The notes under the pieces: model-generated | What the model saw: only the letters and a program-made list of their open reading frames with translations | The model's database searches: none | Told to the model about the DNA's origin: nothing | Shown here: piece after piece, positions 13,368-18,816 of the stretch | Layout: every line of letters starts with the position of its first letter | Numbering within the stretch: position 1 is the first letter of the stretch | Source: Acinetobacter sp. C32I | GTDB taxonomy: Bacteria > Pseudomonadota > Gammaproteobacteria > Pseudomonadales > Moraxellaceae | Assembly: GCF_023702715.1 (NCBI RefSeq) | Contig: NZ_CP098480.1 | Coordinates: 3,844,001 to 3,908,000 of the forward strand | Direction of reading: 5' to 3' | Length of the DNA stretch: 64,000 nucleotides | Program-made: the position numbers and the translations under genes

Positions 13368-13384
13368 TTTAAGTGATTTTTAAG
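13368..13384 (+). promoter_or_regulatory. Putative PmrA box upstream of pmrC
   Basis: TTTAAG-TGATT-TTTAAG is a direct repeat of TTAA-core half-sites with 5-nt spacing. It matches the PmrA-box form (HTTAAD-N5-HTTAAD) known from enteric PmrA. It ends about 50 nt before the pmrC start, which suits autoregulation of pmrCAB. Confidence 0.7.
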
Positions 13385-13433
13385 TTTTTATTCTTATTTT
13401 TAAAAAAGCAAAGAAAATTATTTTTAGACCGTG

Positions 13434-15077
13434 ATGCCTATGTTGCTACAAAAAACCATGCCTAGATCGATTTCACTCCTGACCTTCAATGTGTTACTTG
13501 CAATTTGGTTGGGTGTATTTCTGAATATTGCATTTTATCAAAAGATGCAAGCCTTAACGCCCTATACAGGACTTAAGGCTGGGCTATTTGTGGCTGCTTC
13601 AGTGGGTGTCGTGACAGCGTTATACTTATTTACTTTACAGATTTTAAATTGGAAATGGACGGCAAAGCCAATTGCAATTGCTTTGATATTTATTGGTGGT
13701 TTTGCAGCCTATGCGGTGAATACTCTAGGCGTTTGGATTACTGCTGACCAAATCCAAAATATGATGCAAACCAATATTGCTGAGGCTCGCGATACTTGGT
13801 CTTGGCGTTTGGTGGTTTGGGTCATCGGGATGATCATTCTACCGATTTTCGTGATTATAAAAGTTCAGTTAAAGCCAGAGTCAGGGGGGAAGCAATTCTT
13901 TAAAAAAATAATGGCATCGTTTGTTTCCTTAATGCTTGTTTGTGGTTTGCTATTTATTTTCTATGTCGATTTTGCTGCAATCTTTCGTGAAAATCGTGAA
14001 TTAAAAGGCATGATTTCCCCGCAAAATATGATTGCTGCATCGGTATCTTATTATAAAAAGAAAGCACCTAAAGAGAATTTACCTCTCGTGCATTACGGTG
14101 AAGATGCACAAGTTTCTCAACCCCCAAAAGGTGCACCTAAACTAATGGTGTTGGTGGTGGGTGAAACAGCGCGTGCGGAAAATTTTTCTTTAAATGGTTA
14201 TGCAAAAGAGACCAATCCTAAGTTATCTAAACAAGATATTTTGAATTTCTCTCAGGTGAGTTCATGTGGTACTGCAACGGCAGTGTCCGTACCGTGTATG
14301 TTCTCAGGTATGCAAAGGGTGGATTATGATGAGCGTTTAGCTAGCCATAGAGAAGGGCTACTGGATATTGCAAAACGTGCGGGTTACCAAGTCACTTGGA
14401 TTGATAATAATTCAAGTTGTAAAGGGACATGTGATCGGATTGGAGAATATAAAATTCCAGAATCGATCAAGCAGAAATGGTGTAAGGATGGTGAATGTCT
14501 GGATGATATTTTGATTGATAGCCTGAAAGCTTATCTTCAAACGATTCCAAAAGATGATAAACGTCCGCAATTGGTGGTCTTGCACCAAATGGGGAGTCAT
14601 GGTCCAGCTTATTATAAGCGTGCACCTGAGGAATTTCGTGTGTTTAAGCCAACTTGTGATACCAATGCGATTCAGGGATGCACTCAAGAAGCTTTAATCA
14701 ATACTTATGACAATACCTTGCTTTATACTGATTATGTTCTAGATTCATTGATCAATACATTAAAAAATACTACGCAATATCAAACAGGTTTGTGGTATTT
14801 ATCTGATCATGGTGAATCAACGGGTGAAAGTGGCATGTATTTGCATGGTGCGCCTTATGCGATTGCACCGAGCCAGCAGACACATGTTCCAATGTTGATG
14901 TGGTTTTCTAGTGCATGGCAGCAAAAGGCAAGCAAGCAAATCAAATGTTTGGCACAACAAAGTAAAAATAAACTCAGTCAGGATAATTTATTCCCAACGA
15001 TGCTCAGTTTGCTTGATATTAAAACTAAAGTAATTAATCCTAAAGATGACATGTTACAAACATGTCCTAAGCCATAA
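13434..15077 (+). CDS. pmrC: Lipid A phosphoethanolamine transferase PmrC (EptA)
   Basis: A 547-residue inner-membrane enzyme with five N-terminal transmembrane helices (to about residue 180) and a periplasmic sulfatase/alkaline-phosphatase-fold domain. The nucleophile is Thr280 in SCGTATAVSVPC, zinc ligand Glu244 lies in VGETARAE, and the late SDHGES motif gives further ligands. Paired cysteines match the disulfides of EptA. It adds phosphoethanolamine to lipid A phosphates and lowers polymyxin binding. ATG 13434 is preferred over the GTG just before it. It is the first gene of pmrCAB, behind a putative PmrA box. Confidence 0.95.
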   Translation: MPMLLQKTMPRSISLLTFNVLLAIWLGVFLNIAFYQKMQALTPYTGLKAGLFVAASVGVVTALYLFTLQILNWKWTAKPIAIALIFIGGFAAYAVNTLGVWITADQIQNMMQTNIAEARDTWSWRLVVWVIGMIILPIFVIIKVQLKPESGGKQFFKKIMASFVSLMLVCGLLFIFYVDFAAIFRENRELKGMISPQNMIAASVSYYKKKAPKENLPLVHYGEDAQVSQPPKGAPKLMVLVVGETARAENFSLNGYAKETNPKLSKQDILNFSQVSSCGTATAVSVPCMFSGMQRVDYDERLASHREGLLDIAKRAGYQVTWIDNNSSCKGTCDRIGEYKIPESIKQKWCKDGECLDDILIDSLKAYLQTIPKDDKRPQLVVLHQMGSHGPAYYKRAPEEFRVFKPTCDTNAIQGCTQEALINTYDNTLLYTDYVLDSLINTLKNTTQYQTGLWYLSDHGESTGESGMYLHGAPYAIAPSQQTHVPMLMWFSSAWQQKASKQIKCLAQQSKNKLSQDNLFPTMLSLLDIKTKVINPKDDMLQTCPKP

Positions 15078-15091
15078 GGTGAAGTGAAATC

Positions 15092-15769
15092 ATGACCAAG
15101 ATCTTGATGATAGAAGATGATTTTATGATCGCAGAGTCAACATTGACTTTATTGCGATATCATCAGTTTGACGTGGAATGGGTCAACAATGGGGTAGATG
15201 GATTGGCTTTGTTAACCAAACAGCCTTTTGATTTAATCTTGTTGGATTTAGGCCTACCTTTGATGGATGGGATGCAAATTCTTAAACAGATTCGTCAACG
15301 TAGTGCTGTTCCAGTCTTGATTATCTCTGCACGTGATCAACTGCAAAACCGTGTCGATGGATTGAATCAAGGCGCAGATGATTATCTGATCAAGCCATAT
15401 GAATTTGATGAACTGCTTGCAAGGATCAATGCCTTATTACGCCGTGGCAATAACGAGACGGCACAATTGAAGAGCTCGACTCAGCTATTAAAAAGTGGTG
15501 AGTTAACCCTAGATATAGAGCAACATTTAGCGACTTTTAAAGGACAGCAGATTGAACTTTCCAATCGTGAATGGGCAATCCTGATTCCAATGGTTTCTCA
15601 TCCCAACAAAATTTTCTCGAAAGCAAATCTTGAAGATAAGCTGTATGATTTTGATAGCGAAGTGACCAGTAATACCATTGAAGTCTATGTACACCATTTG
15701 CGCGCCAAACTTGGGAAAGACTTTATTCGTACGATTCGTGGCTTAGGTTATCGTTTGGGACAAGCTTAA
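15092..15769 (+). CDS. pmrA: Response regulator PmrA
   Basis: A 225-residue OmpR-class regulator. The receiver domain covers residues 1-115, with the acidic pocket Glu8-Asp9-Asp10, phospho-acceptor Asp52 in LILLDLGLPLMDG, and Lys101 in LIKPYEF. The winged-helix DNA-binding domain covers about 130-223. It lies 14 nt after pmrC and just before pmrB. PmrA activates pmrC and is itself switched by PmrB. Two putative PmrA boxes flank this locus. Confidence 0.95.
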   Translation: MTKILMIEDDFMIAESTLTLLRYHQFDVEWVNNGVDGLALLTKQPFDLILLDLGLPLMDGMQILKQIRQRSAVPVLIISARDQLQNRVDGLNQGADDYLIKPYEFDELLARINALLRRGNNETAQLKSSTQLLKSGELTLDIEQHLATFKGQQIELSNREWAILIPMVSHPNKIFSKANLEDKLYDFDSEVTSNTIEVYVHHLRAKLGKDFIRTIRGLGYRLGQA

Positions 15770-15773
15770 ATTG

Positions 15774-17138
15774 ATGAAAGCAACTAGGTACTATTCACTC
15801 AAGAAAAGGCTGATTTGGGGGACATCCATTTTCAGTATTGTACTGGGTTGTTTTCTGATTTTGGCCGCTTATAAAGTTTCATTGCATGAAGTCGATGAAA
15901 TTTTAGATACCCAAATGCAATATATGGCTGAGCGCTCGACCTTACAGCCACTCACTCCAACGGCTAGTCGGGTTGAGCTACATCGCACTTATCATGAAGA
16001 AGATTTGTTGATTGATATTTGGGCCTATAAAGATCAGAGTCATTTATGGCATCAAACGCATTTACTGGTTCCGCCTGTGAAGCAGGCTGGTTTTTATATG
16101 CAAAACACACCACAAGGGAAGTGGCGTGTTTATGTGATTCCATTAAAAGATTTCCAGATTCAGGTGAGCCAACAGGAACAGGTACGTAAGGTTTTTGCAT
16201 TGGAGCTGGCAGGGAGTATGTTTATTCCTTATCTACTTCTACTACCCATCGCAATTATTGTACTGGCATTTATTATTAGTTTGAGTTTAAAGCCCTTAGA
16301 TGATTTTAAAGCTGAGCTGACGCAACGTGATTCGGATGGTTTGGTACCAATTGACAGCAGTGAGTATCCACAAGAATTACAACCAACGATTGAAGAAATG
16401 AACCGTTTATTTGAACGGATTCAACATGCACAGACGGAACAAAAGCAATTTATTGCCGATGCCGCGCATGAGTTGAGAACACCAGTGACTGCGCTGAATT
16501 TGCAAACTCGAATTTTGATCAGTCAATTTCCAGAACATGAGGCTTTGCAAAATCTGAGCAAAGGTTTAGCTCGTATTCAACATTTGGTCACGCAGTTGTT
16601 AGCCTTGGCGAAACAGGATGTTGCACTGAGTCTGATTGAGCCAAATACAAATTTTAGGTTGAATGATGTTGCTTTAAATTGTGTTGAGCAGTTGGTGAAT
16701 CTGGCGATGCAAAAGGAAATCGATTTAGGTTTTGAACGTAATGATCCAATTGAAATGCAGAGCCTTGAGTCAACGGTACACTCAATTATATTTAATCTGA
16801 TTGATAATGCGATCAAATATACGCCTTATCAGGGGGTGATCAATATCTCAGTGTATAGTGATGCGGATGATTTTGCTTATATTCAAATTGAAGACAGCGG
16901 TACAGGAATCGATCCTGAACAATACGACAAAGTTCTGAAACGTTTTTATCGCGTGCACCATCACTTAGAAGTGGGCAGTGGACTTGGACTTTCAATCGTT
17001 GATAAAGCCACGCAACGTTTAGGTGGAATTTTGACTTTATCTCGAAGTATTGAATTAGGTGGCTTGAGCGTATTGGTGAAATTACCAAAAAAACTTGCGC
17101 ATCATGAGCAACATGGAAATCCAGAAAAATATACTTAA
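15774..17138 (+). CDS. pmrB: Sensor histidine kinase PmrB
   Basis: A 454-residue membrane sensor kinase. TM1 lies near residues 10-30 and TM2 near 145-165, with a periplasmic sensor loop of about 110 residues between them. A HAMP-like linker follows, then the DHp box DAAHELRTPVTAL with phospho-acceptor His232, and the ATPase domain with N box NLIDNAIKYT, DSGTGI and GSGLGLSIV. ATG 15774 lies 4 nt past the pmrA stop; the TTG at 15771 is less likely. In Acinetobacter, mutations in this kinase are a known route to colistin resistance. No defect is visible here, but there is no reference to compare. Confidence 0.93.
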   Translation: MKATRYYSLKKRLIWGTSIFSIVLGCFLILAAYKVSLHEVDEILDTQMQYMAERSTLQPLTPTASRVELHRTYHEEDLLIDIWAYKDQSHLWHQTHLLVPPVKQAGFYMQNTPQGKWRVYVIPLKDFQIQVSQQEQVRKVFALELAGSMFIPYLLLLPIAIIVLAFIISLSLKPLDDFKAELTQRDSDGLVPIDSSEYPQELQPTIEEMNRLFERIQHAQTEQKQFIADAAHELRTPVTALNLQTRILISQFPEHEALQNLSKGLARIQHLVTQLLALAKQDVALSLIEPNTNFRLNDVALNCVEQLVNLAMQKEIDLGFERNDPIEMQSLESTVHSIIFNLIDNAIKYTPYQGVINISVYSDADDFAYIQIEDSGTGIDPEQYDKVLKRFYRVHHHLEVGSGLGLSIVDKATQRLGGILTLSRSIELGGLSVLVKLPKKLAHHEQHGNPEKYT

Positions 17139-17142
17139 AGCT

Positions 17143-17958
17143 TTAATTAGATTCGGTACTTGTTTCGGCTTGTTGTTTCAGATAGCGCAGGAATAACACA
17201 CATTTCTGGATACGTTTGCCATCATTGCCAACTTTGCTGACATTGAAACGCAGTACCCAATTTAAACGCTTACCGACCTTGCAAATATCTTTATAGACTT
17301 GAGGTTCATCCAGCAAAGCTTGATAGAGCAATTGGCTGGCTGGTTCGAGTCGTTCAAATTCAAAATGGTAAGCGGTTGAGAAAATAAACAGTAACCAGTC
17401 CCGCACAAAACAATCATGCAAGCTAAGCACATCTCGTGGGTCTGTTTCAAAATCAATAAAAGTAAACTGATTTTGTTCATCGACCAAAATATTACGCGCA
17501 AAGGCTTCACTTAAATAACCTTCGTCTGCATGCAGTTGGCGAATAGACTGAATGGCTTGATGAAACAAATCGAATTGTTGTTCAGGATGATGCTTTAGAC
17601 TGGCAATCTTCTGATCTAGCTGACTCACAGAACTTTGACGTTGTGAGCCGACATCTTCAAGTAAAATGCCTTTTTTTGAGAGCGCCAATACATTTGGCGT
17701 TGAAATCCCCAAAGCTTTGAGTTGTTGGATGCGCTTGAATTCACATTGGATTGCAGCAGATCCACCTTGATTGGGAACAGGGGTAATTGAACCTAAATTG
17801 AATATTTTGGCTAACCATTTGAGTGGTGTATATAACCATAAACCATGACGTTCAGATGCTTTTTTAAGCCATACTTTACGGGAATCTAGTTCATAAGATT
17901 GAATAGAGTCAGATTGAGTCGTTAAAGTGGATTCTAAAAACCTTTGATAGTCAGACAT
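17143..17958 (-). CDS. BUD32/Kdo-kinase-like protein kinase-fold protein
   Basis: A 271-residue protein with a degenerate protein-kinase fold of the RIO/BUD32/lipopolysaccharide-kinase type. VWLKKA (Lys32 or Lys33) is the likely ATP lysine, EFKRIQQL gives the C-helix Glu73, LLEDVG is the hinge, ARNILVD gives the catalytic-loop Asn156, and FIDFETD gives the metal-binding Asp169. The HRD loop is altered (LSEAFARN). It converges on pmrB with a 4-nt gap and lies downstream of a PAP2 gene that has PmrA-like boxes. A role in phosphorylating core sugar or a lipid is plausible but unproven. Confidence 0.65.
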   Translation of the reverse strand: MSDYQRFLESTLTTQSDSIQSYELDSRKVWLKKASERHGLWLYTPLKWLAKIFNLGSITPVPNQGGSAAIQCEFKRIQQLKALGISTPNVLALSKKGILLEDVGSQRQSSVSQLDQKIASLKHHPEQQFDLFHQAIQSIRQLHADEGYLSEAFARNILVDEQNQFTFIDFETDPRDVLSLHDCFVRDWLLFIFSTAYHFEFERLEPASQLLYQALLDEPQVYKDICKVGKRLNWVLRFNVSKVGNDGKRIQKCVLFLRYLKQQAETSTESN

Positions 17959-17981
17959 ACGGCAACAAAAATAATCCTAAT

Positions 17982-18023
17982 GTGAGCGTCAAACGTACTC
18001 GTTGTTTGAGTACGGGCGTTCAC
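17982..18023 (-). other. Hairpin in the PAP2-kinase intergenic region
   Basis: A perfect 7-bp stem CGTACTC/GAGTACG with loop GTTGTTT is extended by further imperfect pairing (GTGAGCGT on one side, GGCGTTCAC on the other). It nearly fills the gap between the PAP2 stop and the kinase start. On the minus strand it is followed by ATTAGGATTATTTTTG, a weak U-tract, so it may be a partial terminator or processing site within the operon. Confidence 0.5.
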
Positions 18024-18032
18024 TTTACCACA

Positions 18033-18737
18033 TCAGATGTTGGAAACGGTACTGGTATTGCGATTTGTAACGTCTTGATGATGTTTATAAGTCAATGCAT
18101 AACAAAGCAAATTAATGGCAATACAGATCCATGCGGTCCATAAATTATGACTTAGAAAATGAGCGCCGCGCATCATCTGTGCCCAACCCATGGCAAAGCC
18201 AATGATTATTGCTGCAATGAGGTAAAACCAAGCACGTTGTGTTTGATGCAAACGATAAACAAAGTAGCCTGTCACCAATGCGAAACCTGTACTGGCATGT
18301 CCACCTGGAAAGCAATGCCCCGTAGTCGCAGAGAAATCCCAGATGAAACCTGTTGGGGTTTCATGGGTCATATACCATGGGCAGGCATGCGAGGAGTGGG
18401 CTTTGAGTAGCCCGACAATACAGGTACAGAGCATGCTGACCCAAAACATATAGCCATATTGCCAACGTTGTGGCTTTAGCTTTTCGACTTTAAAAGAGGC
18501 ACACCATAAAACGAAAAAAACCACATAAACAAGCGTTAATAGTTGTTTGACATAAGTGTGGTTAAGTTTGTCGAGGAACCAATCATTCTTATAAGGAAAC
18601 GTGCCATGCTGACTCACCCACGGTTGAATCAGGTTTAAGTCAATTGCTCCTCCCACAGGAAACACCCATAACAAAATGAAAAAGCTAATAAAAAGTAAAA
18701 AACTCTGCCATAAGAAGAATGGTGTTTTCAATATCAT
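18033..18737 (-). CDS. PAP2-family lipid phosphatase of the pmr locus
   Basis: A 234-residue membrane protein with about five spans. The PAP2 signatures are variant: the first is weak (LLKAHSSHACPW near 111-121), the second is GHCFPGGHAST with His147, and the third is QMMRGAHFLSHNLW with Arg190 and His197. This form resembles LpxE/PgpB-like enzymes that act on lipid phosphates or lipid A at the periplasmic face. Three half-sites of PmrA type lie 52-79 nt upstream, in the sense orientation. The kinase-like gene follows on the same strand, and both point towards pmrCAB. Confidence 0.8.
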   Translation of the reverse strand: MILKTPFFLWQSFLLFISFFILLWVFPVGGAIDLNLIQPWVSQHGTFPYKNDWFLDKLNHTYVKQLLTLVYVVFFVLWCASFKVEKLKPQRWQYGYMFWVSMLCTCIVGLLKAHSSHACPWYMTHETPTGFIWDFSATTGHCFPGGHASTGFALVTGYFVYRLHQTQRAWFYLIAAIIIGFAMGWAQMMRGAHFLSHNLWTAWICIAINLLCYALTYKHHQDVTNRNTSTVSNI

Positions 18738-18788
18738 GGAACTGGCTGTTAGGGCTGGATGATGTTCTGATTATTTAATGTCTAGAAG

Positions 18789-18816
18789 CTTAATTGGCTC
18801 TTAAATGAGCCTTAAA
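18789..18816 (-). promoter_or_regulatory. Putative triple PmrA box upstream of the PAP2 gene
   Basis: Read on the minus strand this is TTTAAG-N5-TTTAAG-N5-ATTAAG: three half-sites in exact 11-bp phase. The first two are the same hexamers and spacing as the box before pmrC, in the same orientation and at nearly the same distance from the start codon. An AT-rich -10-like stretch (TAAATA) follows about 11 nt downstream. Confidence 0.65.

What the first reader, a model, noticed from the sequence alone, without database searches (positions are those of the whole stretch)
13368..18816. An inward-facing PmrA regulon: matching PmrA boxes at both ends of the pmr locus
TTTAAG-N5-TTTAAG lies about 50 nt before pmrC. 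The same hexamers with the same 5-nt spacing, plus a third half-site in phase, lie 52-79 nt before a PAP2 phosphatase gene, in the sense orientation of that gene. PAP2 is followed by a kinase-fold gene and both converge on pmrCAB with a 4-nt gap. The simplest reading is that PmrA switches on both pmrCAB and a PAP2-kinase pair as one lipid A/envelope modification set. PmrC (phosphoethanolamine) and PAP2 (phosphate removal) would both lower negative charge or recycle lipid products. The boxes are seen; the regulon is inferred from the known PmrA-box form.
Basis: partly seen in the sequence, partly recalled or inferred. Interest (0 to 1): 0.8.

Follow-up and report, generated by a model that had tools for sequence, protein, structure and literature searches.

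The report
PmrA switch also drives neighbouring PAP2
In Acinetobacter the regulator that turns on the main polymyxin-resistance enzyme very probably also turns on a neighbouring membrane lipid-phosphatase gene (and, in one group of species, a lipid-recycling kinase with it), which adds a testable accessory enzyme to a known resistance response.

Summary
In detail: exact TTTAAG-N5-TTTAAG sites lie before pmrC and before PAP2, facing inward; the 4.19-Mb genome has 8 exact sites. This is the PmrA site published for A. baumannii. Across Acinetobacter a box lies before PAP2 in 82 of 101 convergent loci and before a dgkA-PAP2 pair in 16 more. A -10-like TNNAAT, not used to find the boxes, sits at one fixed distance in 72 of 83 loci, the geometry of the pmrC promoter. 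Where PmrA has another recognition helix, 0 of 11 loci have a PAP2 box; in A. baylyi and A. soli, with pmrAB but no pmrC beside it, the box is gone. Three A. baumannii records carry it. Corrections: in the window the conserved site is 18805-18789; the exact pair uses an extra distal half-site. The kinase is not a conserved member. Best reading: PmrA activates PAP2 as an accessory of phosphoethanolamine modification of lipid A; binding, activation and substrate were not tested. A new member of a known kind, unusually well conserved.

The parts
13368..13384 (+). PmrA box of pmrCAB, TTTAAG-TGATT-TTTAAG (exact)
   Evidence: box with at most 2 mismatches before pmrC in 100 of 101 loci; same repeat published for A. 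baumannii PmrA (PMC10927774, passages)
13395..13400 (+). -10-like TATTTT of pmrC, 10 nt after the box
   Evidence: exact match of box + N10 + TNNNNT; columns +27, +28, +32 are T 93, A 93, T 96 of 96 loci
13431..15077 (+). pmrC, lipid A phosphoethanolamine transferase (start GTG 13431 or ATG 13434)
   Evidence: Pfam Sulfatase and EptA_B_N; NCBIfam NF028537 694.6 bits, cut-off 500
15092..15769 (+). pmrA response regulator
   Evidence: nearest solved chains are A. baumannii-type PmrA receiver domains
15771..17138 (+). pmrB sensor kinase
17143..17958 (-). kinase-fold gene (weak RIO1/Kdo); neighbour, not a conserved member of the module
   Evidence: 23.0 and 22.1 bits, just over cut-off
18033..18737 (-). 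PAP2 membrane phosphatase, 234 aa
   Evidence: Pfam PAP2 49.9 bits; model pLDDT 86.3; PgpB/LpxE fold
18773..18778 (-). -10-like TTAAAT of PAP2, 10 nt after the conserved box
   Evidence: TNNAAT at this offset in 72 of 83 loci
18789..18805 (-). conserved PmrA box of PAP2, TTTAAG-AGCCA-ATTAAG (one mismatch)
18811..18816 (-). extra distal half-site TTTAAG in 11-nt phase (makes the exact pair 18816-18800)
   Evidence: exact and in phase also in L041 and L044

Best explanation
The locus is an inward-facing PmrA module. Phosphorylated PmrA binds the direct repeat before pmrCAB and the one before PAP2 and activates both, each from a promoter in which the second half-site ends 10 nt before the -10 element. 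PmrC moves phosphoethanolamine from phosphatidylethanolamine to lipid A; PAP2, a membrane phosphatase, is made at the same time as an accessory. In one group of species dgkA, whose product would turn the diacylglycerol left by PmrC into phosphatidic acid, has come under the same box ahead of PAP2. Shown here: the sites, their conservation, geometry, synteny and co-occurrence. Inferred: PmrA binding and activation at PAP2. Open: the PAP2 substrate; most likely a lipid-linked phosphate met during lipid A modification (lipid A phosphate or an isoprenoid pyrophosphate). The confidence given is for PmrA control of PAP2; for the accessory role about 0.5.
For: The same repeat is the published PmrA site (PMC10927774 passages; PMC12654582 passages). 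Box before PAP2 in 82 of 101 loci and before dgkA-PAP2 in 16 more; shuffles 5.8 of 101, reversed 16 of 101; pmrA, pmrB and kinase upstream regions near shuffle level. TNNAAT at +27 in 72 of 83, against 1 and 3 of 101 at the best boxes before pmrA and pmrB. PmrA helix YxHH/YxHK: 99 of 99 loci scored a PAP2 box, 98 without the spurious L135; other helices 0 of 11. Box kept where PAP2 is away from pmrCAB (L149, L150, L151). Box gone in A. baylyi and A. soli, which lack pmrC beside pmrAB. 0 of 18 pmrC-negative genomes have PAP2. Three of 3 A. baumannii records have both boxes.
Against: No binding or expression datum for PAP2 was found. The tables of one A. baumannii polymyxin transcriptome (PMC4872528) list no PAP2, but no pmrC, pmrA or pmrB by name either. 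The same exact box is conserved before other genes, among them the 115-aa gene in G015 and G055, whose PAP2-linked PmrA (L158, L137) has the HxHN helix, so another regulator may read such boxes. The reversed-sequence control is above shuffle. 12 of 131 pmrC-positive genomes lack PAP2. The loci are related by descent; the Fisher values are uncorrected.
Confidence: 0.87

Rival explanations
1. The PAP2 box is a real promoter element but is read by another OmpR/PhoB-type regulator with the same direct repeat; PmrA is only a neighbour.
For: The exact repeat is conserved before a META/DUF4377 lipoprotein (16 of 16 examined), a 115-aa protein (18 of 20), a FecCD permease (8 of 9) and trigger factor (8 of 20). 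For the 115-aa gene it is exact in G015 and G055, where the PAP2-linked PmrA has the HxHN helix and PAP2 has no box.
Against: The PAP2 box follows the helix of the PmrA encoded beside it, shares the -10 spacing of pmrC, and the repeat is the published PmrA site. The FecCD locus without a box (L327) is from G014, which has no pmrC hit at E 1e-100.
Confidence: 0.1
2. PAP2 is an undecaprenyl-pyrophosphate phosphatase, the Acinetobacter counterpart of enterobacterial YbjG, raised by PmrA to keep the lipid carrier supplied.
Confidence: 0.35
3. PAP2 is a lipid A phosphatase (LpxE/LpxF-like) that removes a phosphate and lowers charge together with PmrC.
Against: 47.1 bits is far below the cut-off of 275. 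A lipid A phosphatase would remove the very phosphates that PmrC decorates (inference).
Confidence: 0.3
4. Chance or passive inheritance: the box came with the neighbourhood and has no function.
For: Synteny is old, so shared ancestry alone would give similar sequence in near relatives.
Against: Flanks carry about 0-0.5 bits per column while the half-sites and the -10 stand out; the box moved ahead of dgkA in 16 loci and is kept where PAP2 lies elsewhere.
Confidence: 0.03

Closest known systems
PmrA regulon of A. baumannii: pmrCAB and naxD (PMC10927774; a model figure of PMC12330716 adds eptA)
   Same: Same direct repeat TTTAAG-N5-TTTAAG and same regulator; PAP2 box and pmrC box both exact in three A. 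baumannii records.
   Different: PAP2 and dgkA are not named as targets in the passages seen. No YdjC-family protein (the family I recall for NaxD) was found in this genome.
mcr-1-hpap2 and mcr-3/mcr-7-dgkA cassettes (PMC7559476, parts 1-2 of 5 read; PMC10285318, passages)
   Same: A phosphoethanolamine transferase gene with a PAP2 and/or dgkA neighbour; the PAP2 shares K-x6-CP and His for the triad Asp with the mcr-1-linked one (29% identity over 148 columns to one annotated piece).
   Different: Here PAP2 is chromosomal, on the opposite strand, and has its own PmrA box; NCBIfam PAP2_near_MCR1 scores 39.3 bits, cut-off 475.
ybjG of E. coli (PAP2 raised by PmrAB; as stated in PMC7559476)
   Same: A PAP2 gene under PmrA.
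   Different: ybjG belongs to the classical PAP2 type with the intact triad according to that paper; the window's protein does not.
EGY13_RS05385 locus (PMC10285318, passages)
   Same: An eptA/mcr-like gene in a PmrAB-like operon next to a pap2 on the other strand.
   Different: Reported as one locus; no shared regulatory site in the passages seen.

Membership tests
PmrA regulon (Acinetobacter) | direct repeat TTTAAG-N5-TTTAAG (or HTTAAD-N5-HTTAAD) in the promoter | tested here: met
   window 18816-18800 exact and 18805-18789 one mismatch, which fits HTTAAD; 82 of 101 plus 16 loci
PmrA regulon (Acinetobacter) | same box to -10 geometry as pmrC | tested here: met
   TNNAAT at +27 in 72 of 83 loci; pmrC T/A/T at +27, +28, +32
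PmrA regulon (Acinetobacter) | PmrA binds the site | not testable with these tools
   needs EMSA or footprint
PmrA regulon (Acinetobacter) | expression depends on pmrA | not testable with these tools
   no expression data for PAP2 found in the passages read
PAP2 superfamily (PF01569) | family profile over its cut-off | tested here: met
   49.9 bits, cut-off 27.2
PAP2 superfamily (PF01569) | classical signature K-x6-RP / PSGH / SR-x5-H-x3-D (recalled) | tested here: not met
   K112 and H147, H193 kept; C119 for Arg (invariant in 16 and in 31 aligned sequences), His197 for Asp (113 of 115), Gln187 for the C3 Arg
mcr-1-linked hPAP2 type | triad Asp replaced | tested here: met
   His197; H-FLS-H also in the mcr-1-linked piece
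NCBIfam PAP2_near_MCR1 (NF028536) | curated cut-off 475 bits | tested here: not met
   39.3 bits: a relative, not a member of that equivalog
NCBIfam PAP2_lipid_A (NF028538) | curated cut-off 275 bits | tested here: not met
   47.1 bits

The most novel reading that the evidence does not exclude
PAP2 is a regular partner of PmrC in Acinetobacter: a phosphatase with a non-classical (His for Asp) active site that handles a lipid phosphate made or exposed by phosphoethanolamine transfer, with DgkA drawn into the same PmrA operon in one lineage; and the PmrA regulon of Acinetobacter is several times larger than the operons described so far, taking in a META/DUF4377 lipoprotein, a FecCD permease and a small unknown protein.
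Probability: 0.33. Interest if true: 0.75.

Novelty: new member of a known kind. Interest (0 to 1): 0.57.

Why it matters
Work on polymyxin resistance in Acinetobacter centres on pmrC and naxD. A further effector under the same switch, conserved over the genus and present in the A. baumannii records examined, is a candidate helper of lipid A modification and a direct way to ask what the PAP2 beside mcr-1 does. A dgkA-PAP2 operon under a PmrA box supports the view that clearing diacylglycerol is part of the response.

Tried and rejected
Box plus -10 pattern with up to 2 mismatches over the whole genome: 197 hits against 148 for the reversed pattern, so uninformative. Sequence search of PAP2 against solved structures: only three weak hits to an unrelated hydrolase (E 0.31-0.42). 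Foldseek: no match at E 0.001 or better, best 0.012. YdjC family PF04794, which I recall as NaxD's: none in this genome. The genome's own dgkA has no box within 3 mismatches in the 300 nt before it. Promoter scan: no sigma-70-type site at either box. Kinase as a regulon member: rejected as a conserved feature. The L135 box (2 mismatches at -183) is judged spurious; it is inside the counts 65 of 67, 83 and 99 of 99.

Rows and limits. The 101 loci are 100 fetched stretches (99 genomes, G139 twice) plus the window. Convergent loci seen but not fetched: G086, G069, the fragmented PAP2 copies of G033, G022 and G092, and second copies in G005 and G113; G015 was fetched apart (L158). L103 (G093) and L046 (G071) are among the 101 although their PAP2 matches hold stops. 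The 10 PAP2-negative genomes not printed were inferred by subtraction. The named loci are the best 80 of 392 and are largely the same records as the unnamed ones (equal contig lengths, for example L271/L149, L274/L150, L229/L148, L235/L147), so one search gives names and a second look, not an independent sample. Literature: ten searches, seen as listings, showed no paper that names PAP2 as a PmrA target in Acinetobacter; the library holds open-licence papers only and supplements could not be opened. 'PAP2' does not occur in the main text of PMC4872528, PMC6421349, PMC12330716, PMC12654582, PMC6635527 and PMC10215926. PMC8324293 and PMC12691633 were searched for other terms; the former mentions pgpA, a different lipid phosphatase gene, as raised.
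Full report
WHAT IS THERE. The window is C1:3844001-3908000 of a 4.19-Mb genome whose nearest relatives are Acinetobacter. It holds pmrC-pmrA-pmrB rightward and, converging on it, PAP2 followed by a kinase-fold gene. Both boxes are as described. The genome has 8 exact TTTAAG-N5-TTTAAG sites against 3 for the reversed pattern; two of the 8 are here. PMC10927774 (passages) reports this repeat as the PmrA site of A. baumannii pmrC and naxD by EMSA, mutation and ITC; PMC12654582 (passages) gives HTTAAD-N5-HTTAAD and an apparent Kd of 0.112 uM for activated PmrA on the pmrC site.

SYNTENY. PAP2 is found in 119 of 149 genomes of a genus sample and pmrC in 131 of 149 at E 1e-100 or better. No pmrC-negative genome has PAP2 (0 of 18); 12 of 131 pmrC-positive ones lack it (Fisher 1.2e-15, not corrected for relatedness). 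I fetched 100 loci with PAP2 convergent on pmrCAB and added the window. All 101 show pmrC, pmrA, pmrB and, opposite, PAP2; 25 also have the kinase. In eight more distant genomes PAP2 stands directly before a pmrC-like gene on the same strand (L139-L146).

CONSERVATION OF THE BOX. In the 200 nt before PAP2 the best box has at most 2 mismatches in 82 of 101 loci (30 exact, 37 with one, 15 with two); shuffles give 5.8, the reversed sequence 16. Before pmrC it is 100 of 101. Before pmrA and pmrB no locus reaches 2 mismatches; before the kinase 1 of 25 does. In 16 of the 19 other loci a dgkA stands between (one confirmed as PF01219, 2.5e-33; the others by similarity to it), and a box with at most one mismatch lies about 520 nt before PAP2, ahead of that dgkA. 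That leaves L135, L136 and L137. After thinning to 90% PAP2 identity 65 of 67 loci score a box, 64 without the spurious one of L135. The named loci give 78 of 80, 71 before PAP2 and 7 before dgkA-PAP2; these are largely the same records under their names.

GEOMETRY. Anchored on the box, TNNAAT appears at +27 in 72 of 83 loci; no other offset from 17 to 49 exceeds 10. The same test on the best boxes before pmrA and pmrB gives 1 and 3 of 101. For pmrC, columns +27, +28 and +32 are T 93, A 93 and T 96 of 96. The -10 was not used to find the boxes, so this is separate support. It also sets the register in the window: 18805-18789 with TTAAAT at 18778-18773.

NATURAL EXPERIMENTS. (a) dgkA: of four genomes with the dgkA-PAP2 arrangement that I searched, G115 and G089 have no other dgkA, G117 has only a weak partial match with a stop elsewhere, and G068 has a second copy. 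(b) PAP2 away from pmrCAB: L149, L150 and L151 keep a box (1, 2 and 0 mismatches). (c) A. baylyi (L229, same record as L148) and A. soli (L235, same as L147) have pmrA and pmrB but no pmrC in the 16.6-kb stretch, and their best PAP2 box has 3 mismatches; a more distant transferase lies elsewhere in both genomes. (d) Where PmrA has helix EV-Y-x-H-H or EV-Y-x-H-K, 99 of 99 loci scored a PAP2 box, 98 after discarding L135; with other helices 0 of 11. The pmrC box in the same loci is 99 of 99 and 2 of 11.

A. BAUMANNII. Three records of the plasmid collection labelled A. baumannii (two of chromosome size, so probably mislabelled) carry the exact PAP2 box with TGTAAT 10 nt later and the exact pmrC box with TACATT (3 of 3). 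In VB958 PAP2 and pmrB abut. The PmrA receiver of L061 is identical over 127 residues to solved PmrA 8IMW, the entry PMC10927774 names as its own.

THE KINASE. Found in 48 of 149 genomes, 12 of them without PAP2; no association (p = 0.38). Six loci with kinase but no PAP2 have no box within 2 mismatches before it (one has 3). In the window's group the gap from PAP2 is 46-94 nt, with an inverted repeat in the nearest relatives but no terminator found by the scan, so it may be read through. It should not be counted in the conserved set.

MECHANISM. PmrC spends phosphatidylethanolamine and leaves diacylglycerol (as PMC7559476 states for EptA/MCR). DgkA under the same box fits recycling. PAP2 would then act on another phosphate (lipid A or an isoprenoid pyrophosphate), since a phosphatidate phosphatase would undo DgkA. 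This step is inference.

AGAINST. No binding or expression datum for PAP2 was found. The transcriptome tables of PMC4872528 list neither PAP2 nor pmrC by name. The exact repeat is also conserved before other genes, in two genomes (G015, G055) whose PAP2-linked PmrA has the HxHN helix, so a second reader of such boxes is possible.

NOVELTY. PAP2 and dgkA as partners of phosphoethanolamine transferases are known (PMC7559476; PMC10285318, passages), one PmrAB-eptA-pap2 neighbourhood is in print, and PmrA control of a PAP2 is known in E. coli. What my ten literature searches did not show is PmrA control of PAP2, or of dgkA-PAP2, in Acinetobacter. Hence a new member of a known kind.

Noticed in passing
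L162/L289 (G000 C1:4158617-4159720, outside the window): META/DUF4377 lipoprotein with an exact TTTAAG-N5-TTTAAG at about -52; exact in 16 of 16 full-length homologues examined, out of 54 of 60 genomes with a match. Candidate further PmrA target.
   Followed up: partly
L159/L330 (G000 C1:585794-586138, outside the window): 115-aa protein without Pfam match; box exact in 18 of 20 loci examined and within 2 mismatches in 20 of 20, including G015 and G055 whose PAP2-linked PmrA has another helix.
   Followed up: partly
L003/L319 (G000 C1:1280049-1281002, outside the window): FecCD permease with the exact box in 8 of 9 loci examined (of 11 matches); the miss, L327, is from G014, which has no pmrC hit at E 1e-100.
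   Followed up: partly
L005/L350 (G000 C1:2483324-2484652, outside the window): Exact box about 145 nt before trigger factor, in 8 of 20 loci examined; 12 have 3 or more mismatches.
   Followed up: partly
L163 (G000 C1:307782-307814, outside the window): One-mismatch box with a -10-like TATTCT about 370 nt before a second eptA-like gene (C1:308157-309791).
   Followed up: no
L152-L157: Six relatives keep pmrCAB and the kinase but have no PAP2 and no box before the kinase.
   Followed up: partly
L288: On an mcr-1 plasmid of Cronobacter sakazakii the PAP2 gene beside mcr-1 is annotated as two overlapping coding sequences, so it looks broken there.
   Followed up: no
window 17138-17143: pmrB and its convergent neighbour end within a few nt of each other in many relatives (gaps from -57 to 66 nt in 58 of 76 PAP2 cases), so the two PmrA-driven transcripts probably overlap at their 3' ends.
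   Followed up: no
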